Assembly: GCA_963969365.1 (NCBI GenBank)
Contig: OZ017748.1
Location: 3,283,001 to 3,347,000, forward strand
DNA length: 64,000 nucleotides
DNA from: Asterochloris sp. CNOR1
Lineage: Eukaryota > Chlorophyta > Trebouxiophyceae > Trebouxiales > Trebouxiaceae
Direction of reading: 5' to 3'
Both the position numbers and the translations under genes were made by a program. The notes under the pieces were generated by a model. It made no database searches. It saw nothing but the letters and a program-made list of their open reading frames with translations, and had not been told where the DNA came from. Positions within the stretch are counted from its first letter, which is position 1. The number at the start of each line of letters is the position of its first letter. Shown in pieces: positions 540-59,900 of this stretch.

Positions 540-3500
540 ATGCAGTCAGCTGCTGGTACCTGTCAGGGCAGGTTCCGTGTTGCAGTATTCTCCGCAGAAC
601 AGTATGTGAAAGACTTCCTGCAGCTGCCCCTGCAGTCCAATCACTTTGATGCCTCCTTTCTGGAGGTGAGCAGCCTTCTGCATGCTGGTCAGGAGGGAAA
701 TGGCTGCCTGCAGCATCATGATGGCAAGTGTCAGCTTCTGTTTGCTGCCATCAACCAGGAAGCCCTTTGTGCTTTTGGCTTCAATCCACCACGAGAGACC
801 TGGCAGCCTGCGGCGTCGTGACAGAGCACTCCCTTGCTGTGCATGCTGCCGTCAGCAAGGATGCTATCAGCCCTGATCCATCAGGGGGCTGGCAGCATGT
901 GGCATCTTTGACATGCACTTGAATTCTGCTGCATGATGTCATCAGCCAGGATGCCAACCGTGCTCGTGGGTACGGGTTGAGAGGAGCTCAGCATGGGCTG
1001 TCTCAGACAGCATCTTCACCATTAGTAATTTTGCTTCTGCATGCTGGCTGATGCCAGGGTCGTTGTGCTGACAGGTCATGCAAATGGTCTGCAGGTCCCA
1101 CTGTCACTTACCACAGCACCACTGGCAGCGGGCTTCCTCGTCCTGAATGTCTTTGTGAACGATGACTGCAGTGCAGAGGTGGGCCTTGTGCAAGGTGCTG
1201 CAGAAGCTATGCCACCCATGTGTGCCAGCTGGAGGCAAATATGCGCACCACTCACTGTGTCAGTTGGGTCATCTGCAGGTCCTTGAGATCTTGGCCAAGA
1301 ATGGGACTCGCTTCATCACGCTCAGGTCAGCTGGTGGCACAATTCCAAGAGCGCTGCAAACTGCAGCTGAGCAGCTTTGTAGCACACCTTGAGAAGCCGG
1401 CTTTGGTGCCAGGATGTACCTGAGTGCCCTCTCCCACAGCAGGCTGTACAGCAGGCTGCACCTCACTCCATTCCATCCTGTGTCCATGCCAATTACCTGC
1501 ATGCAGGCGCAACAAACTGCAGCGGCTGTGTTCAAGTCTCACGACGAGGCTGGCCCACTTGCTGCTGCTTCATTCACAAGCTGCCCCTCTGCGTTGTTGC
1601 AGGTGTACTGGCTATGACAAGGTGGACCTGGTGGCAGCCAAAAGGCTGGGGGTGGCAGTCACTCGAGTGCCCTCCTACAGCCCAGCCTCAGTGGCAGAGC
1701 ATGCAGTGGGCATGATGCTGTGCCTGAACAGGTGGGGCCTGACATTCATAACCCTGAGCTGCCGCTTTGAGCGAGGCGCTGTGCCTGGACAGGTGGGGGC
1801 TGCTGGCAGCACACATGAGCTGCCGAGTTGAGCAGGGTGGGGGTTCGGCAGGGTGCTATGTCTGAACAGGTGGGCCAGCTGAACAAACACAGAGCAGGTG
1901 CTGCAGGGGGAGCATTGCTCTGCCTGAGCAGCTGACAGTGCAAGCTGCCAACAGCCTTTGCTGCCACCTGGGCTGTCTGGAAAGTTGACGATGTGGGGGC
2001 AGCCTGCCTTTGGCCCATGCGCATGAAAGCCACAGTGGCAGGGCATATCGGGTGCACAGTGCTCTGCCCGAACAAGCAAGCGCGCTACACATCAAAAACC
2101 AAATCAAGAGTAAAAGTGCTGCCACTGGGCGTAATTGGTTCGAGCTCTGTGCGGCCCTCCCTCAGCTTTGACTCAATCATGGCAGCTTGCCAGAACTGCT
2201 CGCAGGCCCTTTGTTTTCCCTCAGGCCTCACTCACCCTACAGGAGTTTTCATTTGGCTTATGCCAGAGTGTCCCAGCAGAACTACTCCCTGTCAGGGCTG
2301 GTGGGCTGTGAGCTGAAGGCAAAGACTGTGGGCGTCATAGGCACTGGTGGCATCGGCAGTGCTGCGTGTCGAATCCTGAAGGTGGGTGGCGGCTGCTGCA
2401 GACTCTGGATGGCGGCTGCTGCAGACGAGCAACCCTGCAAGCGAGGCGTGTGGCATGGTCTGCCTCTGCCCTGTACCGCCCAGTGGCAGGCAGACCCCTG
2501 CTGCCTGCCAACCGTGCCAAGCTTCTGATACAGGCACACAAGCCTCTCAATTGCCTTAGGTTCTGCTGCAGGGCTCTGAGCATAAGCTCTTGCCAAAGCT
2601 GCTGACCTTGAGCAGGCCTGCAAGGCACGATCTCTTTTGTGTACGGCATTCCTCTGCAGGGCTGCCAGGGCAGATGATGGAGCCTTCCTATCCCAGGCCT
2701 GTAGGTAGTCTGCTCACACCACCCCAATGCCGTATGCAGGGCTTTGGGTGTCGAGTGGTGGCATACGACCTCTACCCCAGCCAGGCCTGCAAGGAGGCAG
2801 GCGTGCTCTACATTGACACCCTTGAGGAGCTGCTGCCCCAGTGTGAGGTGGTCACGCTGCACTGTCCCCTGCTGCCGACAACCAGGCACATGATGAATGC
2901 AAGCAGGTAAGCTCGGGAATGACTGCACACACCTGCTGCTGCGGCTTGTGAGGTGATGACGCAGCACCATGCCCTGCTGCCGGCCGCCCGGCGCGTGAGC
3001 AATGCAAGCCATTGGCTGCTGATTAAGCGCACTCACCTGCTGCCGTGTCGTGCTCGACAGCCCCACTCTCCCCTGCCGCTGGCTGTCAAGGAGATCACCA
3101 AAGCAGGTGGGTTCCCTTCTGCGGCTTGGCAATGCTGGCCGCTCCCTGCTGTGACAACCAAGCACCTTGGCGCCGCCAGCAGGTCAGCAACCCAGGGGTG
3201 AGGTGGGCCTCAGGGGCACAGCTGGCACAGACTGCACTCAGAGACGCACATCATTTGAATCTCAGGGCCTGGGCAGCTGGCACAGCCTTGACTGCTGCAT
3301 TGGTCCTGCTGCCGACAGCCAAGCACTTGACAGGGCGGTGCATGCACATGCTGCAGGAGAACCAGCAATCTGCTGCGTGCAGTCCAGTGCAGGGCACTGC
3401 ACTGCACAGCTGGACCGCAAGGCTAGCATGGAGCTGGCAGTCTGATGCACTTCTCGCCGCTGCTGATCATGTGGCGCCTGTGCCTGCAGGCTGCAGCTCA

Positions 3501-4568: not shown

Positions 4569-7500
4569 CTATGCAGGGTTAGAGGCGTCAGCAGGATCAT
4601 CTAGCTCCTCCTCTGGAGAGGTCTTGTCAAAAGCGCTGGCTGGAACCTCTCCGGCCTCTAAGGGCACAGGGAAGTGTGTGCGCCACCGGTATGGAATGGC
4701 TCTGATGAGGGGCTTAGGCACCTCGGCCTTCTTCATGCACGGCACCATCTCGCTGCAGCCCGACAGGTTGAACAAGATGGCTGTGGCCTGTCGCTCGAGC
4801 TGCCTGTTGCTGCCTGCCAGCAGAACAGCCAGCAGGGGCACTGGGTCCACCTGAGCCAGCTGCTGCTTGGCTTCATCCCGCACCGTCAGCGCTTGCAGCA
4901 GCCCTGCATGGCAGACAGCATGGGCAATCCAGCCTTGTTTGCTTCATCTCGCACAGCCAGCACTTGCAGCAGCCATGCAGATGGGTCAACTCGCTTTCCT
5001 GCACTTGACTGCCACTGCTCGCCCCCTGCCTGCCTGGCAGGCGCCTCTGTGACAGTGTGACAGCAGAGCCCTTTTGAAGGGCTGCACAGTGCAACTTGAC
5101 CCTGGTTGTATGCTGTAGGATGCTGGGACCAATTGGAGCCTACTGGGAGGCCAAGAGCGCTTCAATGTACTGCTGCAATATGGGCTGGGCTGCTGCGTTG
5201 CAGGGCTGCTGCAAAAGCTGTCACAAGCTCCACAGCTGCGCAGTATGGCCCCGGCCTCCAGCAATGTGCATTGTGCGCTGCTCATGCACGGCAGCCATGT
5301 TCCTGTCCAGCCAACAGCATCCAGACAGGTTTTTCCTGTTCAAAGCACACACCAAGACATGCTGCATTACAGAAGCCCCGTGGGCATGCTCCGCATCTGA
5401 TGCACCTTGACACAGCCTCCCACAGCTGGCACCAAAAAGATTGCTGGACAGCAGCTCCTCCTGCACTCGCTTGGGCACTGCCCTGCCAGTCCAGGCTGCC
5501 CCCAAGGCATGCAGACTCCTAGCCCTCAGCCCTTTGAGACACTCAGTCAGTGTGCTGGACAGCAGTGCCTCCTGCCTTGCGCTCAGCCTCAGGCCCAAAA
5601 CAACACCCGTGCAGGCTTCATGCTGCAAGCTCTGAATGACCGGCCTCTGCGCATCAGTGAGTTCCAAGCCCTAAGACCACCCTGTTGCATGTGCTTACTC
5701 AGCAAGCTGACTGGCAGCCCCTCGTGCTCCTCAGTCAGCCTCAGGTCACCCCATATCAACCAAGGATGCCTACGACGCATTTTTTTTGGTGTGCCCGCGC
5801 CTCCCCCCTTTGCAACAAATGTCCAATTGGTCGGGGCAGAGCGCCTCCTGCCCCTCGCTCAGCCTCAAGTGCGGCCTCCAGCTGCCCACAGGACCATCTG
5901 CGAGCCTGACCCTCTCCCCGCGTCAAGACACTCGAGCCTCCCTCCACGACCCCAAGATGCCCATCTAGCATGACTTGTTGGCAGCACCTTCTGGCCTCTG
6001 CTCAGCCTAGCCTCAGACGCCTCTGTGGCTGCCCACGAAGTTTTCTGCAATGCTGACCCTCTTTCCCCTTTGAAACTTACCAAGTGCACTTGTTAGAAGC
6101 GCATCCTGCCCCTCGCTCAGCCTCAGGCGCCCGTCTGCCGCCCCATCTGGTACCAGCTCCGCCAGAATGCTGCCGGTCCAGCGGGCAGTCCTCTGCTGCA
6201 CCATCATGTCCAGCGCAGCCGGCTGGGCGGCAAAGCGCAGGGCGCAGCGCGCCGCCGCTGTCTGCTGCGCCTCTGTGCCGAAGCGCAGGTGGCTGTTCCA
6301 GGCCTGCAGGGGGCAGCCTGCCACCAGTGGCCTCTCTCCAGACTCGGAGGGCCTGTGCTGCTTGTCTGGGTGCTGCACACGCAACCGGTCTCCTTACATG
6401 TCCCAGGAGCTGTGGCTTTCTGTATGCCATATGCTTGAGCTCCGTCAGCTCTGGGCTACATTACAACATCAGGCCGAACAATCATGCAAGCCGGTTCATT
6501 ATCCTCTTCGCCAGGAAAGAGAGGTGACCAAAGTGTCCTGGCGCTCACCTGCACTGCCCCGCACTCGAGGACCAGGCGGCCTGAGCCTGGCAGGCCGACC
6601 AGTCCCTCCAGCAGGACGGATGCTGGCAGGTTCACGTGAGCCCCGTGACGAGGGTCCAGGAATGAGGCGGCCAGCTGCAGCACGCCCTGGTCCATCAGCA
6701 GGCGCTGGAAGGGCCTGCACTTGCACAACAGCACCCTGCCTGGCAGCTCAGGCCCCTTTTCTTCCACATCTGGAAGCACTTGAGGCCAGCATTCCAGTCC
6801 ATGTCCTGCACCTTGGCCTTCATCTGCCCCAGGAGCTCCCCGTTCCGACGGCCGCAGTACACAACATAGGTCTTGCTCAGCCCAGTAGCAAGGCACAGCT
6901 GCAGATGGACTGAAGGCTTTGCCAAAACTCAGCCCCCACCTGACCGGTTTTGGGACATCCTTTGGCACCGGTGGTGCAGCCGTTTTCTTCTTTCCTGGCG
7001 GGGACTTGGTGCGCCCTGCTCCTGCCTTGGACCCTTTGCCCTCCTGAGGAGATGTCACCTGCTTGGCAGGCTGCACATAGGTGGCCAGCGCGGCCAGGCA
7101 GGCCAGGCTGCTGGCCTGTGCCTTGCGCAGGCCGCTCCACTGGTGCTCGTCTTGCTGCAGGTGTGGAGGAGGACACGAGATGAGCTGCTGGCTTGGACAC
7201 CCTGCACGATGTTACTGGAGTGCTTCTCCTGCTGCAGGGGGCACAGGACAAGACCGGCGGTTGCTGTACTGACAATAGCTTCATCTTGCTGCAAATGCAG
7301 GGCACAATGTGTGATCGCTGGCAAGACTGCTGGGCCCATGCCTGCTGCAGGCATCTCCAGTTGTGGTCGTCGTGCTGTAGGTACAGACAATAACTCAATA
7401 GCTGGCTTGAAGTATCCGCAGGCCGCCCCATGGATGCTTGCCTGTCAAATTTGACAGGACGTCATTGGCTTTTGCTGAGAGGCGCAGGAGCACATCCCTT

Positions 7501-8731
7501 TGCATCAGCAAGGCCTTGATTGTGTGCTCATCCTGCTGCACCAGGTTCAGACTGTCTGGGAACTAAGCAACTGTACCTGGGTCCACGAGTTGAGGTTTGT
7601 CGCCTGAGACAGCGCGCTCTGCTGCGGCAAGACGCCACGACAGGCAGCAGCCTGCAGCAATCAGGCTGCAGGGCGCTCCTTGCGCAGACCACGGGGGTGG
7701 CCCCACCTTGAGCAGCTCAACGAAGGCGGGCACTGCCTGCTCCAGAGAGGGCACCGCTGCTGGCACAGCAGAGATGTGCTGCAGCAGCTGGGCAGCGTGG
7801 ACCTTGCTGCGTTCGTGGCTCCCAGTGAGCGCCTGGACCACCGTTGCCATCCTCTGCAGCCACTTGTAGCACGTTCTGGGACTGCATGCAGCCGAGCTGA
7901 GCATGGTCAAGCTGCTGAGCACAGATGCGAACAAAGACCACAGTGACACGAGCCTGTCCTGTGCGGCAGCAGTGCCATCCCCGGATGGAAGAGTTCGTGA
8001 ATGGCATGTCTGCATGGCACTGAGCTGCATGGGCTGCAGGTCTTCATCAGCTGAAAGATCTTGGCTGCAGTTCAAGCTTGTGCTGTGCATGAGGGGTGAG
8101 GGCGATGGCCCGGTTATAGCACAAACCCAGACCACCCTCGCATCGCCAGTGCCATCCAGCATGTGTGACTGGATGTTCAGCACGTCTTACCTTGTTGCTG
8201 AGCACAAATTCTGCCACCATCTCCTCGCTTTGGTCCAGCATCTCTGACAGGCAGCCCAGGGCTGCATATTGCTCCTCCAGGCTCTTGTCCAGTAGTGAAC
8301 ACACCCAGGGTAGGCATGCAAGCTTAATGATCTCAGCCTGCATTGCAGATGACTTTGATATCAGTTGGGAGCTCACAAGCTGTGCTGATTAGCAGTCCAT
8401 GCTGGCAGCATGATCTGGTGGACAGGATCGCCTGCTGCTCTTGGCGCAATTGCTGCCATAGACACATCTTGCTGGCCTTGATCAGGCAAAGCGCTTACCG
8501 TCCTGTCAGGGTTCTGGGCAAGAATCCAGAGGTACAGTGCTGCCTGAGCCTTGCTGCAGTGGGGCAGCCCCTGCATTGACACAGCCTGATAGCAATGACA
8601 CACAAATACTCAAGCACACCAATTGCTCCGGCAGTGTTAGGTGATGCACTCACATTGCTGCTGCTCAAGCAATCTGACAGCAGCTTCACACTGCCCTTCA
8701 TCTGCCTCAGTTTATCTGTGGCTGCTGCCAT
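4569..8731 (-). CDS. Armadillo-repeat protein of unknown function
   Basis: The product is helical and repeat-rich, typical of an ARM/HEAT scaffold; no catalytic motif is seen. Well-supported exons are 8654-8731, 8499-8570, 8191-8337, 7707-7958, 7442-7535 (GC donor), 6945-7150, then coding blocks around 6760-6910 and 6549-6750, then 6081-6372 and 4569-4903. The phases close except around 6750-6910, where the boundary is unresolved. ARM-like helices include PWVCSLLDKSLEEQYAALG, VPAFVELLK and VPLLAVLLAGSNRQLERQA. A Lys/Pro-rich linker (PPGKKKTAAPP) lies mid-protein, and the C-terminus is acidic (SPEEELDDPADA). The start is an ATG after a TGCAG acceptor-like site. The gene lies head-to-tail behind the ABC1 kinase with about 150 bp between. 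I do not recognise an orthologue; a nuclear-import or ciliary ARM protein is possible. Confidence 0.75.
4868..4985 (-). repeat. Acceptor-side copy before the last ARM exon
   Basis: The last exon begins GGCTGCTGCAAGCGCTGACG (minus strand, from 4903). About 79 bp upstream in the intron lies TGGCTGCTGCAAGTGCTGGC, followed by GTGCGAGATGAAGC against GTGCGGGATGAAGC in the exon. This is a tandem duplicate of the acceptor region. Confidence 0.85.
5580..6130 (-). repeat. Donor-side exon copies in the last ARM intron
   Basis: The exon end encoding LRLSEGQDALLTSALG (near 6117) is followed in the intron by recognisable copies near 5866 (LRLSEGQEAL), 5745 (LRLTEEHEGLPVSLLS) and 5590 (LRLSARQEALLSSTL). 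Each keeps the same reading sense but none is needed for a closed model. Confidence 0.85.
7441..7458. repeat. Perfect 18-bp palindrome at a GC-AG donor
   Basis: CCTGTCAAATTTGACAGG equals its own reverse complement. It covers the end of an ARM-gene exon (encoding SNLT) and its unusual GC donor on the minus strand. Confidence 0.9.
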
Positions 8732-8878: not shown

Positions 8879-11800
8879 TCAAGCTGATCTAGGGCTGTTA
8901 CGTTTGGGAAAGGCACGCTGGGAGGGCGGCACATCCCGGCCACCTGGTTGGCTGGCTCTAGAGGGCTCTTGCATCATCTGGGCGGGAGCAGGTGTTAGCC
9001 ACCAGGCCTGCCCGTCTACAGCATCTCCACTGTATGTATAGCCTGTGGCGGGCTGCCCAGCAGAGGGCTGCTGCATGTCCTGTGCCACACGAAGGGCAAT
9101 GCGTGCAATGAGCTGGCGTAAGAACATCTCCACTGCAGCAGCAGAAACATCAGCTTAGCTGCTGGGCCTGATCAGGCTGGCTTAGGTTGTGACCCTGGTC
9201 TGTGCAAGGGCTCAGCATAGGGCATAGCTATGCAGCACACCATCCTGGGCACCGCATACAGCACTGACTGAGGACCTCAGGTACATCTATTCCAGGGCTG
9301 TCAAGTCTGCATCATGTCAAAGAGGCTGCCCCAGCCACACAGATGAGAACAGGCTCCATAAATCCCGTGTAGGTGGCACCCCAGGCAGCAGCTGGGGCAG
9401 CAAGTGGCGCAGCTCAGCCCACACTGGACGTGCAGGAGATTCTGTGTGTCGCCAGCCTCAGAGCTCGCGCCTTTCCAGCCCCACCTGTGTGGAGCACGCC
9501 AGGCAGCAGCTCTGGCAGGAGGGGATACAGCTCAGTCCACACGCTCCAGGCGCCGCCATTCATCATCGAGTTGATCTGGAAGGGGCCACCCTCGAGGATG
9601 GCAAAAATGCCGCGGATGGTGGTCAGAGCCTCCTCGTCCTCCTGGGTCACAGTCACTGCTGGCTGAAGCCTGCAGGCAGGTAAAGGCCTGTGAGAAATGC
9701 AGCTCAGCAAGGGCAGATGCTGGGGTGGCGAGAAAGTGGTGCTGAATTGCAGGATGGCTGTCTGCTGGCCAGTGCAGGCACAGGGGCCATGCTCCATGTC
9801 AGAGATCACCAATCAATGCCTCCTGCTTGTCCTGGGTCACTATCACAACCATCTGCACCCTGCGACTGGGCCCCATTCTGCGTCAGCAGACGTGTTGGCT
9901 GTGCTGGCAGAGCGACGCAGGCATTGGTCAAGAGCTCATCATGCGTGTCCAGAGGTTTTAGGCGCAAGCTGCAAGTGCAGCGCTCTGCCAGGCCTCGGAT
10001 GTGATAGCAGTCAAGACTTGGCCATGACCTCCGCAGCCGCTGCAGCAAACCCTTTTCTTTCATTCAGCCCGGGCAAGCACTGGGGAGGTCTTGACAACCA
10101 GACCCGGTCAACATCAGTCCAGGTCTGTGAAGGGAAGCCAGGCCCCACCTGGTGAGGATTTCGAAGGGCGTAGGGACGGGCAGCAGCAGGCCGCGCAGGG
10201 GCCCCAGCGCGCTCATGGTGGTGCCGACTGCAAGCGCGGGCAGGCTGCCCAGCAGGGAGGTCACCAGGCGGCTGAGGGCCTCCCTGCTGAGCGCGTCCAC
10301 TGCAGCCACCATCTCATCCACGAGCAGCTCCTGCAGGGCACCAGAGTGAGGTCACAGTCAGCTGGACACACCATGGTACTCAGGACCAGTTGACGGCTCA
10401 GGCACAATCTTTTCCATTGAGGCCTGACAATCAGAGCAGGGCACCTGTGAGGTCGAGGTGACTGGCTTGGAGGCGCCCCTGCTGAGTCATCCAGAGCTTG
10501 GCCCTGACTCATACTAATCCATGTGCAGCTCCTGCGGATTATATCAGTCTGGTGCTATGGCCAGCTCAATGTGAGGCATGCCAGCGTGGGCTGCTGCCAC
10601 CGGCTCAATACCCCTTGCGGCCACAACAAGCTCTCGGCACCCATGCCGTGCAGCTATCCCTGCACGCTGTGTTGCCGCTCTGCCAGTCAACCCCAGCATG
10701 CTTGCAGCCGGTAGCTAACAGGAAAACCCCACTGCAGGCGCTGCGGTGGCTGTTTGCTTGCATTGGAAGCAGAGCTTCAGCACCTCAGCACAGGCCGCTG
10801 AAGGGAGTTCTGCAAGTGAATCCAACAACACAAAGGCTGCATGCCACTTGAGCTGCTGAGATGACTGACAGGCTACACAGCTTTCATGTTCCAAGCAGCA
10901 CGCCCTGTCAGCACGAAGTTTAGAGGTCTTGCTGCAGCCGCACCTGGACATAGCTCCCGTCTCGGCTAAAGATGACCTTCAGAGCCTCTCTGGCAGTGTC
11001 GTGCAGCACCACCTGTGGCTGGCCAGCGACCGCTGCTGGCTGCGCCTGCGTGCCGGCCACTGTGAAGCTGCCAAACCCTTCTGCCAGGCGCTGCAGCCTT
11101 GTGATGTCCAGGCGAGTCTTGTCCTGCAGGGCCGAGATAAGCGGTGTTCAGTGATGGCCATGACACGCCCGCTGCGCCGTCCTGCTGCGCTCTGCACATT
11201 GCTGACCTGCAGCAGTGCCACACAACAGCCCTTGGGCAACCTTGCTGCCCTGGTTGAGTGCCCACAGGAACTTTCAAATCAACCATGGCTCGTCAGGTAG
11301 GCCAAGGAGCATCAAAGCCAGACAGAGCAGGGGCTGAGACCCTCAAAGCCAATCCTATAGCTGGGTTCCTTGTGAGCAGCTCACTGCTGTTGATCTGTTT
11401 GAGGTTGAGTGCGCTTCGAACATGCTCACCCCATACAGCAGTTGGCGCAGAGCTGTACGCGTGCGCGGGTGGTTGTCAATCAGCAGCCGCCGCGACAGGT
11501 AGGGGAAGCACTCCTTTACAATGGCATACTGTGGGTCCACCCTGAGAGCAATGCCCTCAATCACGCTGAAGGCCCGCAGGATAAGGGCAAAGTAGGCTGG
11601 GATCTCAAAAGGGTAGTCTCGCGACAGGCTGTCCAGCTCCGCAGTGACCTGCAGCAGATGTCATGCAGAATTAGGCGAGTTTGTGCAGCCAGCGCAATGC
11701 AGCTCTCCAGCCATGAACCATCACATGTCCAGCTCATGGTCCTGTTTCAGAAGGTAAGTCGGTTCCTTGACACACAACATCAAGCAGGACACAGCACCGT

Positions 11801-14800
11801 ACCTCGTCAATATTGACGCCCCTGGCACCGCCGCCGCGCGACAGCTGTGAGAGGATGTTGCCAAGGGCCGGCACAAGCCCCGGCTGGTCGCGGGGATCAG
11901 GGGCACCTGCACCGTGTACAGCTGACAGCCTCACAGCAGGTCAAGCTGCCTGCTGCTCATACCCACAGATGGCATAGCACACCGGTGAAAGCAAGTCTGG
12001 TCAGCACCACAGGAGACCAAAGCACCCCGCCTTGCCATTCTGATTCATGCTGCTGCCACTACCCTGTGTGTTGCTTGCTACAAATGTCAGCAGTGAGATG
12101 CCAGGCCCCATATCAATGCCCCCACCCTGGCCAACAAAGCTGCACCTTGCCTACCACAGCTGCCGCTGCACCCTCGCCCCAGCTTTCAAAAGATGCCCCG
12201 CTTGCTGCTGCGCGTTGCCTTCCATGGCCCAGCTCCCCCCAATGCAGGCTGCCCTCCCAGTACACCTGCCTCCTGCACACTTTGCTGACATCTCTGCAGC
12301 CTTGCACCCAGCCCCTCACAGGCACCTTGGGGGATCATGCCCAGCCTGTGCATTTGTGAAGCCACTGCATTCCAGCGTTTCACAGACTGATGCGCCCTGC
12401 AGCTCTCTGCAGAGAGGCTCCCCGTTGAAGCCTCAGGCAAGTCATAGACATCATGAATGATCTCGGACCTTTGTGGCTCACCTGGGGGAATGAAGCCGAG
12501 TTTGCGTAGGTCAACAGCCACTGCGTCCCAGTCCTCGACAGACAGGTGAGAGATGTACTCCACTAGGGCAATGCTCTGCTCAGGGGTGACTTCGGTCATG
12601 AGGCCAAAGTCGAGGATGCAGATCTTGCCCTCAGGTGTCCTGATCAGGTTGCCCTGCAGCCGTTCCAGGACGACCTCATTACCCCCAGCCGCCATGTCAG
12701 GCTGCAGGCGCGAATCTGGCCCTTGCGACTGGCATGCAGCCGCCGCAGCAGCCACAGGAGATGCCCGCAGCCATACAGTGCAGGGGTTTACAAACTGAGC
12801 AGCAGTTATCAATGCAGCACGAGCCCAGCTTGCAGACACTGCCATCGGCGTTCCCCACACATAAGACAGGCATGCAGTGTTCACACACCCAATTGTGAAG
12901 GACAATAGACCAGCTGGGCTCACTGAGTGGAGTTCTGCGTGCAGAGCTCCACCCCAATGTGAGACAGGCAAGAAGTGTTCATGCATCCACTTGTGGCTAG
13001 CAGGACGCTAGCTGGGCTCACTGGGTGGGGGTCTGCATGAAGGAACCCGGTCTCCAGAAGCTGAATGAGGTAACAGTTGAGCAGGGTGTTGCAAAGCTCC
13101 CGCACGTCCCCTGCCCGGCTGTCGCTGAGCTTCTCCCCTGCAGGCAAGGAACTCACCTGATCACAGGCTGAATCAAGGCTTCCAAATGAGTCTTGAAACC
13201 ACACAGCATGACGCCCTGGCCAGTGGAGACCAGCCTGCACTGCACTTGTTATTGGCAGGCATCCTGGCCAGTAATGCACTGCCGAGTAGAGCAGGCCAGC
13301 TGGGCCCAGGCAGCGTCAAGGTCTCCATCAGCTGCTTGTTGCCGTGGCCAGCAGCGTCTGCAGCTACACCCTGCGCAGATCACCCATCGGTCGCATCACT
13401 CACCTGGAACCCAGGACGTCACCAGAACCTCCTTGTTGCTGAGTTGCACGTACACATCTGGCACAAAGATGCCGTCCAGCCCTGCCATCTGCTGCTTGAA
13501 GACTGTGCTGTTGATGGCTTCCCTCTCATAGTCCAGCTCGTGAAAGAATCTGCCGGCCCACTCATCTATAAGGGATGTCCAGTCTGACCGGATCTGCAGG
13601 GCAGGGGCCGCCCCAAGCTCAGTCAGGGGACAGTTGCAGCGACACTTGCAGCGCAGCAGGCATGCCACAATTTGCAGACAGCATGGCAGGATGACTGCAA
13701 GAACGCAGTGCAGCGCTGTGTACCCATTCCAAAGGCGTACCTTGCAGAAGCTGCTGCTGATGGGCCAGGCAGCCAGCACCCTGTTGGTGTCTGTTCGCAT
13801 GCAAAGCTGTCCAGTGCCAGCCACACCTGAGGGAACTGTCTGAGAAAGATGGCCAGCCGCCGCATGAGGAAGAGGTCCAGCGCCACCGACTCCATGACGG
13901 ACGGGCGCTGCACCTTGACAGCCACCTCCCCGCCCCCATAGGCTGGGGACAGGGTGCCCTTGTAGACCTGGCCCAGTGAGGCTGAGGCTATGGGGATGGC
14001 TGACAGGCGGGTGAAGACGTCCTCGATCGGCTGCCCAAAGGCTGCAGCAGGGGCATGGGCTCAGCCTGGTGCAGCCAGGGACCAGGCGAGTTCAGCGACA
14101 GACTGTCTTATTGAGCAGCACTCAGCCTGGGCAAAGTTCAGCCTGGTGCAACCTGGGACCAGGTGAGGGCAGCGATTTGAGCAGCAACAGACTGTCTTGA
14201 TGAGCCGAACTCGCCCTGGGCAGCTGTCTCGAAAGAGGGCATACATGAGAGCATGCAGTAGGAATGCACAGCTCAGAAGGGGTTGCCTGACTGCAGACAA
14301 CCAAAGGACATGCCAGTCCCCACCTGCTGCCTGCTGTCCTTTGTGCCTGCTCAACTTGGGGCCTGCCATGGTCAGCAAGCATTGCAGCATGCCCTGCTAC
14401 AGAGCCTTGACAATGCAGGCGGCCAACAAGGGGCAGCAATGCGCCGCTGATCTCCTGTGGGCCCCTCTCCCATGCAACGGCTGTGCCATCTCGTTCAGAC
14501 AAGATCTTCCCTGAGCCACGGCGATGCGGACAGCTGGCGAGAGGAAGGCGGGCTCAGGCTGTGCCTGCCTGACACGGAACCGCCGTAAGGCACATCAGCA
14601 GGTCACCACCCTGCACTGCGAGAATGCATCCACCCAGCATGATGCATGCAAATCCTTCCCTGTTTTGTGTCAGCCCCACCAAGGAATTGCAAAAGTCGTT
14701 CTGGCTATGGCAATGCGAGCGGCTGGCATGAGACGAGGGGAGCTGAGGCTGTGCTGCCTGTGGCAGGCACCACAAATGCAGTCTCACGGCAGATTGGCAG

Positions 14801-35585: not shown

Positions 35586-36154
35586 TCCTGCAGCAGCGGA
35601 CTGGCCAGCAAGCCACAAGCGGGGTCAGCGCCTGCCGTGCAGCGTGCTTGGTGCAGGCGTGTGCTGCAACTGCTGGCCAGCCACAGACGTGCATGAAGCA
35701 GCAAGCTGCGCACCTGCAACGGCAGAGCGACATCGAGAAACAAGATGCCATGCAGCACTGGCTTCGACGGCTTGCGCGCAGCGGCATGCACTCACAGGCC
35801 AGAGCTTGTGTCAACACCTTAACTAAATAGGCAGTGCGGCGCAGGTGCGGCTTGCTGGCTGAGACTTCTGGCAGCAGCAAGTGACTGCAAAGAGTGGGCC
35901 CTGTATTGGGTTCACCACATGCCGCATATTGCTTCCAGCCCAGCTCCTCCTTCTCAGCAAAGCTAGCAAACAAGTTGACCAGGTCTACTGGCCGGCAGGG
36001 CACCTCACAGCCGCTGGACACAGCTCCAGGCATCTGCTTGCTGTTCAATGCTTGCCCCACTTCCAGTGGTGGTGATTTACCTGCCGGCTGCAGCACACAT
36101 ACGGCTGCAGCACACAGTCTTGCCAACTGCTCGGACTCACCTGGCTGCTAACGC
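35586..36154. other. Spacer upstream of the PWWP gene
   Basis: This stretch lies between the PWWP start and the UBL5 stop, both on the minus strand. Open frames here show no family signal. It probably holds the PWWP promoter and 5' leader and the UBL5 3' UTR. Confidence 0.5.
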
Positions 36155-47157: not shown

Positions 47158-50100
47158 ATGCAGCGGCACGTGTCCAGACTGCGAAGCCTGCTTGTGAGCT
47201 TTCAACGGAGTCACATGCCCACCTTGTTGAACTGCAGCTTGACCGATGCTGTGTTTCTGCAGAGCATTGAAGCTGATGGCAGCAAAGCGCTTGCTGAGGA
47301 TGCGCCACCTGTTGTGTGGATCCATGCAGCCTCAGCTGGCAAGCACTTCCTGGCCATGGTCATCCTGCAGCGCTGCCTGGAGGCAAGTGGCCTTCACTAG
47401 CGATGCAGGCTGCACCACCTTTGACAACACAGCAATCACTGGCTTTCTCCTGCCTGCAGGAGCTGGAGGAGTCACGCATTGTGTACACCTGCAATGATGC
47501 GGAGATTTACAAGCAGATCAAGGGGGCCAAGCTAACCAACGTGAGCACTGATGGGGCCAGTGTAGTACAAGAAACCAGCCCAGTCTCGTGCTGGGCTCAA
47601 GCCCACAGCTATAATCCCCTGAAGGCCTGTCTGCCAGCATACGCTTTAGGCACCTTGTGCACCACCATGTCATGCACACGGTCCTCACAAACCCACCTCA
47701 AGGGGGGTGCAATTTCCCCTTCCTTGCAAGAGGAGTCCCTATGTGTGCCAGCATACTGATCAAGCACTTCAGGCAGAAGCCGCCATACAGAGTCGGCAAG
47801 CACCCCTTCTGGGTTGCTATCTGGCAGTGCTTCTGCAACGGCGCCAGCTGCGCAGACTGCAGGCCTGGCAAGGCTTTCAGCAGCCAATGATCCCAGGCAA
47901 GAGCTGCCTTGGCCACCCTGCCCCCATGGTTGCAGGTGCATGTGGAGCCAAACCCTCTTGGTTGGACAAACAATGCCACGGCACTGCTGAACAAGCACAG
48001 GCCGGGGGCTGCCATCTTTGTGGTGAGCAGCGGCCCACAGGGTGCAGGTGTTGCAGGCAGCCAGCTCCGATGGCTGGCAATGCAGGCTAGATAGCCCTTC
48101 TGCCCTGGACTCTGCTGCCGGCAGAGCATGTTTGCAGCAGCTGCCGCATGCCTGCTCAGGAGCCTGAACTGCCCAGGCCTCCCGCGTGATGAAGACTCGC
48201 TCTTGCATGTGCACGTTGCGTTATTCATTGCTCTAGCAGAGGCCAGCTTGCTAGCTGAAGAATGTGGGGGACTGCCGAGCATGAGGACGCTACTTGAGGC
48301 TCAGGACGCGTGCATGGCATGCAGACGATGCCAGCAGCTGCACCACTGTGCTTGGGCCACCTGAATGATGGCCTGTGAGACCCTTGCAGGGCTTGGAGCT
48401 GGAGCCTGTCCTGTCAGAGTGCGCAGCCCGCAACATTACAGTGGGCATCATAGAGGCTCAGATGCCTGCCTCTCTGTTTGAGGACTACTTCTGGTGGTGG
48501 AAGGCCTGGGCTCCCACTGCGTGGCAGCCGGGGGAGCTTCTGCGGGATGTGGACATGCTGCTGCCCAAGCGAGGCATGGTGAGACGGCGCATGTCGCATG
48601 TGTGAAGCAGTGCATGGTAAGGGTGTGCCTCATGAGGTGTTGCTGCTCCTGGAAGCCGGGGGGCTGCTGAGGGAGGTGGCCATGCTGGTGCCCAAGCGAA
48701 GGTGTGGTGAACAACATGTGCGCGCACATGGTAGCAACGGGAAAAACTTTCGCTGAGGACAGAGGGTGTGGTGTGGGGGTACTCGCAGCATGCGTGTGGA
48801 GCTTATGGCAGCCTGAGGAGCTGCTGAGGGCGTGTGGGCATGATGCTGCTCAGGGAGGCGTGGCGGGAGAGTGGGGGCATGCACAGTGTGGGGCGAGATG
48901 GGGCAGCGTCTGCTGTGCGTGCATCCAGGTGTTACCAAGTCCCTCTCACACCCCAGCCCCACACCTGAGCAGAGCTGTGCTGCTGGTTGCAGCGTTGCAG
49001 CTCGCATTCCAGCCCACGAGCTGCAGAGCTGTGCTGCTGGTTGTGTTGCCGATGTGAGGGTCTGGGGCTGGCCTGCAGGACATTGCCAGGCTGCGCATGC
49101 TGGGCGCGCGAGTGCAGCAGATGAATGGGTGGTGCGCAGAGCTGCAGTTCGCGGCGGCCTGCGACCCTGCCCCTCACATGCGCATCCTGCCCAGCGACCC
49201 CGGTGTGGCCGCTCTCAGAAAAGGTGGAGACATGCACACAGGCAGCAGGGCAGCATGCCCCATGCAGCGCTGGTCCTCCCCTGGGCAGCAGCTTCTGCCT
49301 GGTCATGCCTGACCAGAGCCCCCGTCAGGGCCCGTCAGGTGCAGCATGCTTGCTGAATCACAACCAAGCCAACAGCCACGGCCTGGTCTGTGACAGGATA
49401 CTTCTAGTCTAGGCTATGCTTGTGCTGCTGCACATGATGGCGGATGCAATGCGCCTGACCTCCCACCCTTGCTTGGCAGCTGCAGCCAGCCTGCCCGCAT
49501 GGCCCTGCTGTCTTCTCACAAGCTGTACACCTCGCATGCTGCATCTCGTTTGAAACTTCTAGCTGGTCGGTCCATCTGGCTGGCTCACATCACATGTGGT
49601 CATTCAAGCCAGGCTGCGCTCTGCCCTGCAGCTGTGGCTGGGCGCCGCACCTGGCTGCGTCTTGCTCGCAGCTTGCCCAACGCCTCTCACGCTCTCTCAT
49701 GCTTGCCCTGGAGCTGAGGCTGGGCATCGCCCCTTGCCGACCGTTCATGTCGCACCTGCCTGGAAACTGATTGATGCCCCTGCACTCATGATCTTGCCTG
49801 CCTGTAGCGATGGCTGGGTGCCCCGTATAGCTAGCCCTCCATTTTGCACCTGCCCCTGAGATGACCCTTCCTGCCTGAAGCTGTGGCTGGCCGGCCCACC
49901 TGGCTGGCTCTGGGGGAGGTGTCTGCTGAGGACCCCCAGGCCATTGAGGTCCACCAGCACCTGCAGAGCCAATGGCCGGGGTTGCTGACCATCATTGCCA
50001 CAGAGCGCAGCAAGCTGGGGGCTCAGCGGGACCTGATCAAGGCCACCTGGGGCTTGGAGGCGGCCCTCCTGCACAAGGGGGATGACCACAAGGTGTGCAG

Positions 50101-53100
50101 CCAGCCTGACAGGCTGCTGGGGCTTGCTTCAGCGCTGAGCACATGTGCGACTGACATGGGCATGCATACCCTGTATGAGTGGCATGCACTTGGTGCAGTG
50201 CCAAATGAAGCGTCTGCTCCCCGCCCAGTGCTGAGGAGCAGCTTGGAATTCCTCAGCTGCCTGTGCAGCAGCACACGTTCGATTTGGACTCTGAAGCAAT
50301 GCATGAGGCGCTTGACTGTGCCTGCAGGAGCACCACGGGGTCAGCGTTGTGCTGGCTGCCATGGAGCACCTGACATCGCTCTGTCAGGTAGCAGAGATCG
50401 TGTATGTCCAAACCCTGCAGCTGGGGTGAGTGAGCCAGCGCCCTGCCGCTGTGCAGCTGCAGCACTGACCTGACCGAGCTGCTCTTGCTGCTGCTGCAAA
50501 GTGGCCTCACCTGCAACCTGCATGCTTGCACCAGTCAGTACTTGCCTGTGATTAATTGCCGGGCATTGCCTGCCATGTGAGGGACATCCTGCGCATCCCA
50601 AGAGCTCCCCCTGCCTGCGGTGCATGTAAGGCGTTATGGCCCTCTGCTCAAAGTCAGCCTGCACATGCAGCAATGCTGTCATGGGTCACGCTGCTGCCGC
50701 CGGCTGTGCTGTCATTGTGAACAGTGACAGCGAGGCCGACGAGTTGAGGGCGCTGAACGAGGCGGCTGTCAACATTGCAGAGGAGGCTTTGGCAGCAGCC
50801 TTCTCCTCGAGGGCCTCCAACCCCACTCCTAGGTGGGATGAAGGCGTGTTGTGTGCACCGCCGACGAGATCCCTGAAGGCACCAGCCCCTCAAAGCCCAC
50901 TCCGAGGATACTGCCTGCACTGTGTGACCTGTGCATTGCCATGCAGGCCTTTGCACCCAGGGAGGGAGGGCTCAAACCTTGACCATCAGGGCTGCACAGC
51001 TGCCTGCGTTGAGAGCAGCAGGCACAAGCAGCGCTGCAGATGCACAGTCGACACTCACTGAAGCACTGCATCATCTCAGGGACGCCAGGGGCTGCCCTGA
51101 GACAGGGCAATGCCCCTTGCAGCCTGTTGGACATGCAAAGACATGTTCTAGGCTACAACATGGGCCAGTTTAGGAGCTATGCAGCATGCGCAGCCTGCCT
51201 TGGCACAACTGCCACCACAAGCCCCTGGGCCAGCCCAGCAGCTGTGTAGCATGTCTCACCTGTTTTGAGCCTGTCCTGCTGCTGTGCAGGGCTGCCGTGG
51301 ACATCCTTGAGTCAGCCCATGAGCTGTGTGGTATGCCTAATTGCTGGAGCCTGTCCCTCTGTCGTGCAGGGCGGCCATGGGCATCCCTGGATCTGCACGG
51401 TACCTAGCGGCGCTGCGGCCAGACACCATCTCAGAGGACTCCGATGGGCAGCCATCAAGCAGCACCTCCCAGCCAGACCGTGGAGTGCGCCTGCGGGTGG
51501 GCAGCCAGTTCCGAGACAGCAGCCAGCAGCAGCCAGCCACTGCGCCAGCTGCTTATGCCCACAACTGGGCGTTTGCTGAGCCTGACAGCAGCCCCTATGC
51601 TCCCTCAGGTGTGCTGCCTGCCATACCGCGCAGCCTATCAAGCCTTTGCCAAAACCTGCAATGGGCCTCTGCAGCCCCCTGGGGTGCACATGGTCATCAT
51701 TGAGCAGAGTGTGCTGCTATTGTTCGTGGCCTGACAGGCGGCCGGCACAGAAGGTGCTGCCCATCGCCTCGTAATGTGCTGCACAGCTTGCTGCGCAACA
51801 CACCTGCTTTGTGTGCATAACAAGTGAAGGCAGAACCAACACCACCCATGCCACACCCAATCACGCCACGAGTCTGCAATGCTGCAGGGCGGCTGCAGCA
51901 GACTGTCAGTGCGATCCCCCACCTGGAGGGCCACCTCTTACAGGAGCTGCAGGTTGCAGCAGCAGCAGAGGCCCAAGCAGCAGCAGCCTCAGGCAGCCCA
52001 ACCAGCAGCAGCCAGCAGCCTGACCCCCTGGAGCAGGGCGGCGGGCCCTCTGGCAGTGAAGGTCCGCAAGCGGGCGAGGCAGGGCAGGTTGTGCCTGAAG
52101 GCCGCCAGTCTGCAGCTTTGGCGCCGATGGGGGCGCCCAGCGGGGACCCTGAGGGTTCCGCTGCTGGGGGGAGCCAGGAGGCATTGGACAGCCCCCAGCA
52201 GGCAGGGAGTCCCCAGTCGCCCTGGCGCTCCCCGGGGAGCAGGCGAGCTTCCTCATTCACGCAGCGGGAGGCCAGCAGGTAGATCTGCTGCTGACATGGC
52301 CCTGTCTTTCCAGCTGATGAGCGTGTGACTGCCAAAGTCCCTTGACCCACTGCTGCATGCGGTGTGCCACATCAGGTGATCCTTGCGAGACAGCACTTTG
52401 AACTGCAGCTCAGAGGTGCACATTCCTTGTCTTGGCGTCCAGAGTCCACAGCACTGGGCCGCAAACCTGCATGCACTGCGCTGATGTGAACTCGAGTCCA
52501 CCAGACAGGCTTGCAGACGCCCTGTCCAGGCATGAGAAGCGCAACTCCCAGCAGCAAGCTCAATTGCACAAGCAGACCGCAAGCAGGCTCTGTTGGCTGG
52601 CACTGTCACCTGCAGCGCACCCTGGCCTGCAGCGCCCTGTGTGAGCTCAAACTGCAGGCTGGTCCAGTTTGGCAGCCCCGGCGCAGAGCAGGACCTGGCT
52701 TACTCGCTGAGCTCACCAGCTCACTCGCATTGTGCTGCGGCCACCGCAGGCTTGCTCTCCCAGCCTCAAAAGTGGTGCAAGCTGCAGCGCATCTGACAGG
52801 GCCGCCATGACGAGGCACAGCTCTTCTCCCTGAACCCTGCCCAGCCCGCGCTGCTCCTGCTGCAGGCTGGGACAGGCCAGCAGTCCCCGCGCAGGGCAAG
52901 GCCTGGTCCGCCAGCTGAGCGGGCTGGAGGCTGGCAGCAGCACCGAGCTGTGGCAGCGCGCCTCAGATGCTGGGGAGATCAGCGCAACCTCCGCCCTGGC
53001 ATCCCGCAAGCTGAGCAGGGAGTCTGCTACTGGCAGCGGCACAGGCGAAGCTGGCACCTCTGCCATGCTGGGGCACACACCTGTATCTGCGGGGCCTTTG

Positions 53101-54275: not shown

Positions 54276-54354
54276 CTTGTGGTGCCAGTAACGCGTTGCT
54301 GTATCTGACAATAATGCTTGAACATGAGTACCTGCTCAGCACATGTCCTGATAA

Positions 54355-56800: not shown

Positions 56801-56958
56801 GATATTCAGCTTCCGTGCGCATGCTGCATGGCCCCAAGCTGCACGAAATTAACACCTGAATGCACATATAGGCTGCTTGAGCCCTAGGCAGGTCACAGAA
56901 TTGGCAGGCACGACGCAGCACGGCTCCAGCGCATGAGGGGTGATCTGTAGGTAGAGAC
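56801..56958. promoter_or_regulatory. 158-bp bidirectional promoter of RsmI and TIM50
   Basis: The two ATGs diverge with only 158 bp between, so 5' UTRs and core promoters must share this space. No TATA box is evident. Confidence 0.6.
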
Positions 56959-59900
56959 ATGCTGCGTGGGGCTGCTCAAGCCTTGATCCGAGGTGGACAC
57001 AAGCGATCACTGGGTGCAGCACTGAGGAGCTTTGCCAGGTCTGCTGTCTGTCTGAGTGTTGCTGCACTCCAAATCAAATGGCTCTGCTGCTCCTGCATGG
57101 GCATGCCATGCAATGCCTCACCTGAAGCGCTGTGACATGACCCTGTGCGGCCTGCCACCTGGATGTGTTTGCTGCCAGTGCTGGGAGCTGGTCAGAACAA
57201 GAGGGCTGCCTGCATCTCATGGTCCCATCACGACCTCCCCCATTGCTGAGCAATGACCCTGCCCGTCTTTGCAGTGAGGGGATACCAGCATCTGTCAAGC
57301 CAACAGCAGCAGCAGCAGGAGCTGTCTCAGAAGCCAGCAGCACAAGCAGGCCCGCCACTGGCTTCAGTACAGCAGACGCAAGCAGCAGCCGCCTGTTTGA
57401 GAATGTCCGGGGCCTGACAGACACGCAGGCAGCTGCCACTCAAGCAGCAGCAGCTGCTGCTGCGGCAGGGGCTGGGACAGGGGGCGGCGGGGAGGCCAGC
57501 ACAAGTGGGCGAGCAGGTGAGTCTGCGCATAGCGGACAGCAGGAGAGGTGCATGTCAAGGGATACACCCTTTGACCTGCCCGCTGAAGCAGCGTGTTCAA
57601 GAGGCTGCCTGACACCCAACAGGGACAGCCCACCGAGTGGTCTAATGTGGTCTGCAAATTGCACCTATCAGGACGCTGAGCTGCGGCACGCATGCCTGAG
57701 CAGTCCCGCTCCCTGTGCTGCAGCCCCTCTGTTCTTCCTTCAGGTGGCATCTTCGATGCCTCAGGGAATGCCGAATTTGCAAGAATATGACGGGCTCAGC
57801 AGGCAGACCTGCCCAGACCTGCCTTCAGCACACTCTACACAGCCTGCAGGAGAAGATGGGTCTGGGGAGTCATGCTGCCTCCCTTGAACCACGGCTTGAA
57901 GGCACTGTTGCACTATGCAGGTGGCATATTGATGCTGCCTTTATTGCTTCTACCAGACCGTCTGACAATCGTGTTCCTCCAAGCAGGAGGCATCTTCAAT
58001 GCCCTAGGGAACGCTGCCTTCCTTGGCGTGCTGGGTGCTGGTGCCTTCTTCGGCTACTACACGTGGCGCTACACCAGCGACGAGCTGGAGCACATGTTGG
58101 ACGAGCAGACCAAGCCTGAGAACCACTTCCCGGGCAGCCAGCAGGTGAGCAATGCTGATGCACCACATTGAGCCAGAACTTGTTTCCTAAGGAGGCTAGC
58201 AGGACAAAGGTTGCCTCATAGCAGCATCACAGCACTTGCTGCCCACAACGCAGTCAGCCTGGTAAGAGATCCTTCAGCATTCATGCAGTGGGCGCCTTTC
58301 ACATGAGCAGGCACCTTGGACCTCACTAATACCAAGGCTCGTCAGATCTGCAATTGAATGATGCAACAAGTTGCGCAGAGCATGCAAAGACAACCGCATG
58401 ACCCTTTGCCCGGTGCAGTTGTACGTCTCTGCAGATAGGTGTGATTTCACCAATATTGTTAGCTTTTCAATGGCAACAAGGATCTCTTCACCGGAAAGTT
58501 CTCAAACCTGCAGCCCTGGTGCCCTGCAGGTGTGGCTGCCTGTGATGGAGTGGTACCTCAAGCAGCGGCAGCAGATAGAAGACGAAATGAAGAAGTACCA
58601 GAATCCCCCCTCTGACCACCTCCTGCCGCCGCTGCCATCCCACGCATCGTGAGTCATGCACAATGGCTGCATTGTTGCCTGTGTGGCATGCTCAGCAGGC
58701 AGATGGTTTACCCTGTGCCGAGCTAGGGCATGCGGGCAGGGTCATCTCAGCAAGCAGGGTTTCACCCAGACTGAGGGTTTGTTGCTGTCGCTGCTGTGAA
58801 TGGCGTCATTTCCTGCTGTCCTGTGGTCCTCCGTAATGCCCATGTTTCCAGGCCAGGGTATGTGCAGATGAGAGGCAATCTTTGCCTTTCTGTTGAGGTG
58901 TCAGTCAGCCAGGTTACATGTCAGCCCTGCCTTGCTGCTGGCACAGTTGGGGGGCCCCACCACAGTCAGCACCCTCTCCAGCAAAGCACATGTGCTTGAT
59001 GCAGCTGAAGGTGCACAGCATGCCTCTCGACACCTGAGGCACTTGATGCAGATCAGCACCGCGTGCCTGGCAGGCCTGTGCTTTTTGGCCTGGAGAACAA
59101 ACATCAGCACTCTGCCAAACGCCAGCAGGGTGCAGCAGGCACATGTGTACCGCACGCTGGACCAGGGTAGCGCAGTTCAGTTCACACAAATCCAGCCGGC
59201 TGCCTACGTCGCAGGCACGTGCGCACCCTGGTGCTGGATCTGGACAACACCCTGGTGCACAGCGACTGGACACGGGGGCGTGGCTGGCGCACTTTCAAGC
59301 GGCCTGGGGTCGACGACTTCCTGAAGCAGATGGCGCAGATGTATGAGATTGTGGTGTACACGGCTGCCCTGCCCACCTACGCAGACCCCATCCTGGACCG
59401 CCTGGACCCCAATGGGTGCATCGCCTACAGGTGGGGCTGGGTCACTGGGGAGGACGGCCTCTGGGCACCACGACGTGTTGTGCAAGGCTGTCCGGGCATC
59501 GTGCTGCAAAGCATGCAATCAGACTGTGCAAGGGTGCCGGCCTGGACGTAATGGGTGCGTCGCCTGCGGTGTGCTTGGTTGAGCGCATGTCTTCGCCGGC
59601 GGGCATGGGTCATCAAACTGCATGACGTCTTGTGCCTTGCCATGCAGCAGCAGCTGGCTCTAATGGAAGCTACCCCTTGCAGTCTGTGACCAAGATGAAA
59701 GTGGGCATGCGCATGTGCAAGGCAATGACTGCATTCTGTTAGCAGATGGCCAAGCCTGTCGATGTCAAGCTTGTGCACTGCAGCAGTTGCGTTGCCCACA
59801 GATAGGCTCAGTTTGTCGTCCATCTTGGCGAATGAGATCAGGGGTACCTTGGGCGACATGGCTGCATCAGGCATATGCTGCCTGTCAGGCAGGGTACAGC

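What the first reader, a model, noticed from the sequence alone, without database searches (positions are those of the whole stretch)
1720..58003. Introns are built from decayed tandem copies of their own splice junctions
In at least ten genes the introns contain serial copies of the adjacent exon end plus donor, or acceptor plus exon start, at spacings of about 50-200 bp, usually more diverged with distance. The copies are private to each intron and keep gene orientation. The simplest inference is recurrent local tandem duplication across splice sites: one copy stays in use and the others become intron. Duplication-based intron gain is a known proposal. A genome where it seems to be the main route of intron growth, on both the donor and acceptor sides, would be new to my knowledge.
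Basis: partly seen in the sequence, partly recalled or inferred. Interest (0 to 1): 0.92.

Follow-up and report, generated by a model that had tools for sequence, protein, structure and literature searches.

The report
Introns hold decayed splice-junction copies
In this stretch of a genome that looks like a green alga's, many introns carry worn, same-direction copies of the exon edge next to them, best read as leftovers of small DNA duplications that lengthened the introns without changing the proteins.

Summary
In 11 gene models (61 introns, 58 long enough to test), exon-edge probes found same-strand matches in their own intron at 14/58 donors and 12/58 acceptors (z>3), against 2/58 and 1/58 on the reverse strand; 24 introns in all. 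I located 39 copies in 23 introns, 35 crossing the splice junction. They match their own intron only, sit on the side that a junction-spanning duplication predicts, and decay without codon-position bias.

Two reader claims fail. Divergence does not rise with distance (rho 0.15, P 0.36). Copies lie in 7 of 11 modelled genes, and recognisable copy is only 8% of intron sequence.

Most likely mechanism: ordinary local DNA tandem duplication, not aimed at splice sites. The same-strand excess also exists outside gene models (34/757 windows, reverse 3/757). Exon edges stand out because the used copy is conserved while intron-only pairs decay twice over. Simulations reproduce the edge peak and identity range if duplication mostly stopped some time ago; steady duplication does not. 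Tandem duplication is known; I found no report of this density in ten library searches.

The parts
20294..26855 (+). CFAP100 (FAP100/MIA1) gene model, 12 exons (5' end not modelled)
   Evidence: PDB phmmer E 3.2e-153 to CFAP100 of entry 8glv; curated exons
27072..32527 (-). MNS1/FAP127 gene model, 9 exons (5' end not modelled)
   Evidence: gap-free 408-residue alignment to MNS1 of entry 8glv, E 1.5e-77
36155..37143 (-). UBL5/Hub1 gene, 2 exons, one 767-nt intron
   Evidence: 72 residues aligned to UBL5 without gap, E 7e-37
57932..60704 (+). TIM50-like gene model (5' end uncertain)
   Evidence: E 1.8e-46 to Tim50p
9485..17089 (-). ABC1-kinase gene model
   Evidence: Pfam PF03109 E 8.8e-59
42575..46590 (-). 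MRS2-like gene model, 0 of 6 tested introns with copies
   Evidence: Pfam PF22099 E 5.7e-24
4569..8243 (-). ARM-like gene model, ab initio
   Evidence: below Pfam cut-off
47158..51608 (+). ORF47 gene model, ab initio
20585..20661 (+). copy of CFAP100 exon end + donor (intron 1)
   Evidence: z 6.1
20680..20736 (+). copy of CFAP100 exon end + donor (intron 1)
   Evidence: z 3.5
21465..21544 (+). copy of CFAP100 exon end + GC donor (intron 2)
   Evidence: z 6.6
25596..25635 (+). copy of CFAP100 exon end + donor (intron 10)
   Evidence: z 10.7, 85%
25681..25747 (+). copy of CFAP100 exon end + donor (intron 10)
   Evidence: z 13.9, 75%
25772..25813 (+). copy of CFAP100 exon end + donor (intron 10)
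   Evidence: z 15.9, 93%
25897..25988 (+). copy of CFAP100 exon end + donor (intron 10)
   Evidence: z 27.4, 84% over 90
26025..26108 (+). copy of CFAP100 exon end + donor (intron 10)
   Evidence: z 10.3, 80%
32245..32284 (-). copy of MNS1 exon end + donor (intron 1)
   Evidence: z 7.5
31725..31796 (-). copy of MNS1 acceptor + exon start (intron 2)
   Evidence: z 12.3
30479..30554 (-). copy of MNS1 exon end + donor (intron 4)
   Evidence: z 8.5
29905..29960 (-). copy of MNS1 acceptor + exon start (intron 4)
   Evidence: z 6.5
29512..29564 (-). copy of MNS1 exon end + donor (intron 5)
   Evidence: z 7.9
28423..28461 (-). copy of MNS1 exon start (intron 6), does not reach the junction
   Evidence: z 7.3
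27818..27879 (-). copy of MNS1 acceptor + exon start (intron 7)
   Evidence: z 3.4
27373..27406 (-). copy of MNS1 exon end (intron 8), does not reach the junction
   Evidence: z 4.9
36427..36446 (-). copy of UBL5 acceptor + exon start
   Evidence: z 4.4
36475..36516 (-). copy of UBL5 acceptor + exon start
   Evidence: z 4.0
36543..36607 (-). copy of UBL5 acceptor + exon start
   Evidence: z 13.2
36652..36711 (-). copy of UBL5 acceptor + exon start
   Evidence: z 12.8
59540..59579 (+). copy of TIM50 exon end + donor (intron 3)
   Evidence: z 6.3
15366..15421 (-). copy of ABC1K acceptor + exon start (intron 3)
   Evidence: z 6.4
14509..14553 (-). copy of ABC1K exon end + donor edge (intron 4)
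   Evidence: z 8.4
12912..12944 (-). copy of ABC1K exon end + donor (intron 7)
   Evidence: z 8.7
12323..12392 (-). copy of ABC1K exon end + donor (intron 8)
   Evidence: z 9.1
10455..10535 (-). copy of ABC1K acceptor + exon start (intron 11)
   Evidence: z 5.1
9813..9863 (-). copy of ABC1K acceptor + exon start (intron 12)
   Evidence: z 4.9
7317..7382 (-). copy of ARM acceptor + exon start (intron 2)
   Evidence: z 11.0
5973..6035 (-). copy of ARM exon end (intron 5), stops short of the junction
   Evidence: z 4.1
5805..5887 (-). copy of ARM exon end + donor (intron 5)
   Evidence: z 12.3
5716..5751 (-). copy of ARM exon end (intron 5), stops short of the junction
   Evidence: z 3.2
5530..5594 (-). 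copy of ARM exon end + donor (intron 5)
   Evidence: z 8.8
4938..4979 (-). copy of ARM acceptor + exon start (intron 5)
   Evidence: z 7.0
48650..48710 (+). copy of ORF47 exon end + donor (intron 3)
   Evidence: z 10.8
48806..48890 (+). copy of ORF47 exon end + donor (intron 3)
   Evidence: z 9.0
49551..49586 (+). copy of ORF47 acceptor + exon start (intron 4; junction uncertain)
   Evidence: z 3.6
49621..49662 (+). copy of ORF47 acceptor + exon start (intron 4; may be the true acceptor)
   Evidence: z 6.6
49775..49838 (+). copy of ORF47 acceptor + exon start (intron 4; junction uncertain)
   Evidence: z 4.8
51267..51316 (+). copy of ORF47 acceptor + exon start (intron 7)
   Evidence: z 8.6

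Best explanation
Short stretches of DNA (tens to a few hundred bp) were repeatedly duplicated in tandem, in place, across this genome. Where a unit straddled a donor or an acceptor, the junction next to the exon stayed in use and the extra copy became intron, so the protein did not change and the intron grew. Units inside exons were presumably mostly lost to selection; units inside introns or between genes were tolerated but are now hard to recognise, because both copies drift. Exon-edge copies stay visible because the used copy is conserved. The scarcity of near-identical copies suggests that most of the duplication happened in the past. Shown: the copies, their statistics, orientation, side, privacy, lack of coding bias, and a same-strand excess outside gene models. 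Inferred: the duplication mechanism (slippage, template switching or unequal exchange not distinguished), neutrality, and the past timing.
For: Same-strand excess with a reverse-strand control near zero. Copies fall on the side that a junction-spanning duplication predicts: exon-only probes, right side 13/58 and 10/58, wrong side 2/47 and 0/47 at z>3. By probe position (z>4, 45-nt windows, 53 introns of 200 nt or more): last 45 exon nt 12/51 (reverse 1), 30-75 nt in 3/47, 60-105 nt in 0/42, 90-135 nt in 1/28; first intron 15-60 nt 1/53; acceptor window -15..30 9/53 (reverse 3), 15-60 nt into the exon 6/50 (reverse 0). Similarity goes on into the intron in 14/35 copies (P 0.0002; again P 0.0001) but not into the next exon once 6 nt of splice consensus are skipped (2/35, P 0.34). 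Neighbouring units in CFAP100 intron 10 resemble each other more than distant ones. Mismatches by codon position 23/18/23% (P 0.44), 9/27 copies net-frameshifted. Homologues have no residues at the copied segments of CFAP100 intron 10, UBL5 and MNS1. Introns with copies are longer, median 574 (n=23) against 301 nt (n=38), P 3e-5. The old-duplication simulation that fits best gives exon-edge and intron hit rates 0.19 and 0.05 and identities (10th-90th percentile) 0.78-0.91; observed 0.18, 0.03-0.06 and 0.77-0.91. Three continuous runs give 0.13-0.18, 0.11-0.28 and 17-41% of matches at >=95% identity; observed 1 of 15.
Against: Simulation settings were chosen by hand: 8 old-pulse sets and 7 continuous sets. 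Some old-pulse sets fit poorly (edge 0.19 with intron 0.13-0.17; edge 0.11), and all three overstate matches 30-75 nt inside exons (0.11-0.20 against 0.06 observed). No relation of divergence to distance, which simple serial duplication at the junction would predict; larger units carrying several copies could explain it, but one direct check of a ~467-bp unit found no colinear match. Only 3/27 copies have an in-frame stop. Exon interiors show a same-strand excess too, 11/202; in a repeat 5 of 9 lay at ends of gene models beside unmodelled sequence and 2 within 60 nt of a junction. The intron-side test is partly circular, since some alignments already reached into the intron. MRS2 has copies in 0 of 6 introns, MNS1 in 7 of 8. 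No transcript data, no relative, no whole genome.
Confidence: 0.75

Rival explanations
1. A process aimed at splice junctions (linked to transcription or splicing, or to splice motifs acting as microhomology) copies exon edges into the neighbouring intron.
For: The match rate peaks at exon edges (12/51 and 9/53) over the intron interior, and continuous untargeted duplication does not give this peak.
Against: Same-strand local repeats also occur outside gene models and in introns (34/757 and 74/917 windows, reverse 3 and 5); untargeted old duplication can reproduce the peak; copies do not run on into the next exon beyond the splice consensus, so copying from spliced RNA is not supported.
Confidence: 0.12
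2. The copies are kept as alternative or mutually exclusive exon ends, or as decoy splice sites.
For: 28 of 35 junction-crossing copies keep the core dinucleotide (15/19 GT or GC, 13/16 AG) against about 66% expected from decay (P 0.11); of 11 scored GT copies 2 exceed the median used donor and all 11 the median random intronic GT. Only 3/27 have an in-frame stop.
Against: No codon-position bias and 9/27 net frameshifts; the conserved CFAP100, UBL5 and MNS1 proteins have no room for them; the retention count favours alignments that reach the junction.
Confidence: 0.07
3. The copies belong to a dispersed element such as an Introner or MITE that captured exon edges.
For: Introners are reported mainly in rapidly evolving lineages such as green algae (PMC9860276, passages).
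Against: Copies match their own intron above all others; self-BLAST finds 0 distant same-strand pairs and 1 inverted pair, array excluded.
Confidence: 0.02
4. Ab initio models placed junctions at repeats, so the pattern is an artefact of gene prediction.
For: The gene finder took copies as exons in CFAP100 and UBL5, and the ORF47 intron 4 acceptor is doubtful.
Against: Homology-supported genes alone give 11 donors and 8 acceptors of 42 introns; the repeat excess needs no gene model.
Confidence: 0.02

Closest known systems
[quoted passage not shown] reviewed in PMC3443670, passages seen; Gao and Lynch 2009 not held)
   Same: Local tandem duplication of gene sequence supplies new intron sequence without changing the protein.
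   Different: There a new intron is born between duplicated AGGT sites. Here existing introns seem to lengthen and hold one to five decayed copies of one of their own junctions.
Potato RdRp duplication of an intron end plus exon start (PMC4974935, passages seen)
   Same: The duplicated unit spans an acceptor junction.
   Different: It made a new spliced intron and added exon sequence, one event; here copies are left inside the intron, in 23 of 58 introns tested.
Pseudogenic (decaying) exons in mammalian genes (PMC2718932, abstract seen)
   Same: Duplicated exon sequence decaying within gene structures.
   Different: Exon-level pseudogenes, associated with 0.4-1.0% of genes; here exon edges with one splice site, in 7 of 11 modelled genes.
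Novel introns by tandem duplication in Drosophila (PMC2891723, abstract seen)
   Same: One copy of a duplicated exonic stretch becomes intron.
   Different: Novel intron positions, not serial copies inside existing introns.
Introners (PMC9860276, passages seen)
   Same: Rapid change of intron content, also in green algae.
   Different: Introners are similar between introns genome-wide; these copies are private.

Membership tests
Tandem-duplication intron gain (AGGT model) | duplication is local, tandem and in gene orientation | tested here: met
Tandem-duplication intron gain (AGGT model) | intron lies between the duplicated sites: its 5' end copies the downstream exon start, its 3' end the upstream exon end | tested here: not met
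   of 39 copies no acceptor-type copy starts before intron position 50 and no donor-type copy ends within 176 nt of the 3' end
Tandem-duplication intron gain (AGGT model) | intron position absent in close relatives | not testable with these tools
   no relative found
Introner / transposable element | similar sequence in many unrelated introns | tested here: not met
   (this window only)
Pseudogenic exon (whole-exon duplication) | copy covers an exon between both splice sites | tested here: not met
   donor-side match rate falls to 0/42 at 60-105 nt into the exon and 1/28 at 90-135; wrong-side controls 2/47 and 0/47
Pseudogenic exon (whole-exon duplication) | disabled by stops or frameshifts | tested here: inconclusive
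   9/27 net frameshifts, 3/27 with stops
Mutually exclusive exons | copies keep reading frame and coding constraint | tested here: not met
   no codon-position bias, 9/27 net frameshifts
Mutually exclusive exons | copies appear in transcripts | not testable with these tools
   no RNA data
Minisatellite array | high-identity head-to-tail array | tested here: not met
   TRF reports 9 rows in the window, none in CFAP100 intron 10 or the UBL5 intron

The most novel reading that the evidence does not exclude
In this alga introns are largely made of past local tandem duplications, several per intron; splice junctions act as recorders, because the conserved exon edge lets old duplications be seen and dated that elsewhere have faded. 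Intron length here would come from a pulse of small tandem duplication rather than from transposons.
Probability: 0.4. Interest if true: 0.75.

Novelty: new variant of a known kind. Interest (0 to 1): 0.55.

Why it matters
Where intron sequence comes from, once an intron exists, is poorly known outside transposon-rich genomes (my judgement). Exon-edge copies give a datable record of small duplications in otherwise unalignable DNA, so rate and timing of intron growth become measurable. Intact-looking spare splice sites beside the used one also make a natural test of how splice sites are chosen.

Tried and rejected
The first gene finder over-predicted introns and was replaced by a stricter one plus hand curation. 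My first codon-position and stop counts (18/19/27%, 14 stops, 55 gaps) used a wrong reading phase for CFAP100 and ABC1K; one search corrects them (23/18/23%, 3 stops, 9 net frameshifts) and only those are used. Notebook note 1 cites the earlier codon numbers, says that 36 copies cross the junction (right count 35) and gives 'about 0 deeper in exon' loosely; the true profile is. Part failed after printing the site table; the scoring was redone. Continuous-duplication simulations did not fit. Copying from spliced RNA: a first run showed a small excess of similarity to the next exon (P 0.0016, 5/35), which faded when splice consensus was skipped (3 nt P 0.09; 6 nt P 0.34). Searches for relatives in viral contigs (3 scans) and genome contigs (1 scan) found none. 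Literature: 10 searches, mostly read as listings, gave no report of serial decayed junction copies as a common feature of introns; many subscription papers are not held. Haematococcus was only a guess at the species; one paper was looked at (passages) and settled nothing. Two further papers were opened and not used (PMC6071210 abstract; PMC3488318 passages).


Full report
What was checked. The window has no whole genome behind it in these tools. I trained a simple coding model on recognisable exons, predicted genes and curated them by hand (two exon ends corrected). Six genes have homology support: CFAP100, MNS1/FAP127, UBL5/Hub1 and TIM50 by PDB matches, an ABC1 kinase and an MRS2-like transporter by Pfam. 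Five more models are ab initio, one with a PWWP domain match. That the best axonemal matches (entry 8glv) are from Chlamydomonas, and that the best UBL5 match is human, is recalled, not shown in the output. The axonemal genes fit a flagellated green alga; the species is not identified. This gives 61 introns; three shorter than 120 nt were dropped, leaving 58.

The observation. Without any gene model, nearby same-strand repeats are far above chance: 57 pairs against 0, 0, 1 in simulations, and a self-BLAST finds 12 nearby, 0 distant and 1 inverted pair (both leave out the 17.9-19.3 kb array). With gene models, a probe of 60 exon nt plus 25 intron nt finds a match (z>3) in its own intron at 14/58 donors and 12/58 acceptors, against 2/58 and 1/58 on the reverse strand. 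24 of 58 introns have at least one. With slightly longer probes I placed 39 copies in 23 introns, 35 crossing the junction.

Two clear cases. The CFAP100 exon ending at 25503 is followed by an 858-nt intron with five copies of the exon end and donor, 75-93% identical. The reference CFAP100 runs straight across this point with no extra residues, so the copies are not part of the conserved protein. UBL5 has one 767-nt intron with four copies of its acceptor and second-exon start, three of which keep CTGCAG; the protein aligns to the reference UBL5 over 72 residues without a gap.

What the copies are. Exon ends are copied into the following intron and exon starts into the preceding one; the opposite sides give 2/47 and 0/47. 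The source is narrow: the last 45 exon nt match in 12/51 cases, 30-75 nt in 3/47, 60-105 nt in 0/42 and 90-135 nt in 1/28 (z>4). In the acceptor window next to the junction the reverse strand also gives 3/53 against 9/53, so that control is weaker there. Mismatches fall evenly over codon positions (23, 18, 23%; P 0.44); 9/27 copies are net-frameshifted and 3/27 have a stop. Similarity often goes on into the intron (14/35) but not into the next exon beyond the splice consensus (2/35, P 0.34), which favours genomic DNA over spliced RNA as the source. Introns with copies are longer (574 against 301 nt), though long introns also give more room.

Divergence is unrelated to distance (rho 0.15, P 0.36). 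The copies are in 7 of 11 modelled genes; MRS2 has none in 6 introns, MNS1 has them in 7 of 8. Recognised copies are 2227 of 27418 intron nt.

Is it about splice sites? In 45-nt windows every 30 nt (17.8-19.4 kb left out), the same-strand rate at z>4 is 25/173 at exon edges, 74/917 in introns, 34/757 outside the models and 11/202 in exon interiors; reverse strand 0, 5, 3, 0. So local duplication is general. On a repeat, 5 of 9 exon-interior hits lay at ends of gene models and matched unmodelled sequence beside them, so some may be further junction copies, for example at 57961-58035 in TIM50. The extra height at exon edges could mean targeting or better preservation. In simulations of untargeted duplication, a steady rate (7 sets) gives about as many hits inside introns as at edges, and where identity was read (3 sets) too many near-identical copies. 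A past pulse followed by decay (8 sets) gives a range of fits; the best has the observed edge-to-intron ratio (3.7) and identity range, others give 3.5 and 5.3, and some fit poorly. The best fit uses about 3.7 duplications per intron, which would make much of each intron duplicated material, but it overstates copies 30-75 nt inside exons.

Relation to known work. Tandem duplication as a source of new introns is described (PMC3443670 and PMC4974935, passages; PMC2891723, abstract), decaying exon copies are known in mammals (PMC2718932, abstract), and Introners are a different, dispersed process (PMC9860276, passages). What I did not find in ten searches of the open library is serial decayed copies of an intron's own junctions in some 40% of introns tested.

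Verdict. A real and unusual pattern, best read as debris of ordinary local tandem duplication, probably from the past, kept visible by conservation of exon edges. It looks like growth of existing introns rather than intron gain.

Noticed in passing
17988-19236: Minisatellite of about 28 copies of 45 bp (135-bp higher unit), with long open frames on both strands.
   Followed up: no
21213-21725 and 22835-23508: Two CFAP100 introns appear to use GC donors (CAG|GCAAGC, GAG|GCAGGG); the copy at 21465-21544 keeps the GC.
   Followed up: partly
47158-51608: ORF47 weakly resembles the KDO-transferase N-terminal domain (E 0.011, below the Pfam cut-off).
   Followed up: partly
49551-49880: The modelled ORF47 intron 4 acceptor (CTGAAG) is poor; an upstream copy has CTGCAG and may be the one in use.
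   Followed up: no
1717-1833 and 2842-3009: Local repeats of 61 and 105 bp spacing in a region with no gene model; possibly further junction copies.
   Followed up: no
57730-58035: TIM50 exon sequence near 57961-58035 matches sequence at about 57730-57790 upstream of the model; probably an unmodelled acceptor with a copy.
   Followed up: partly
35479-35647: Only inverted self-match of the window, 65% over 178 positions, around the start of the PWWP gene model.
   Followed up: no
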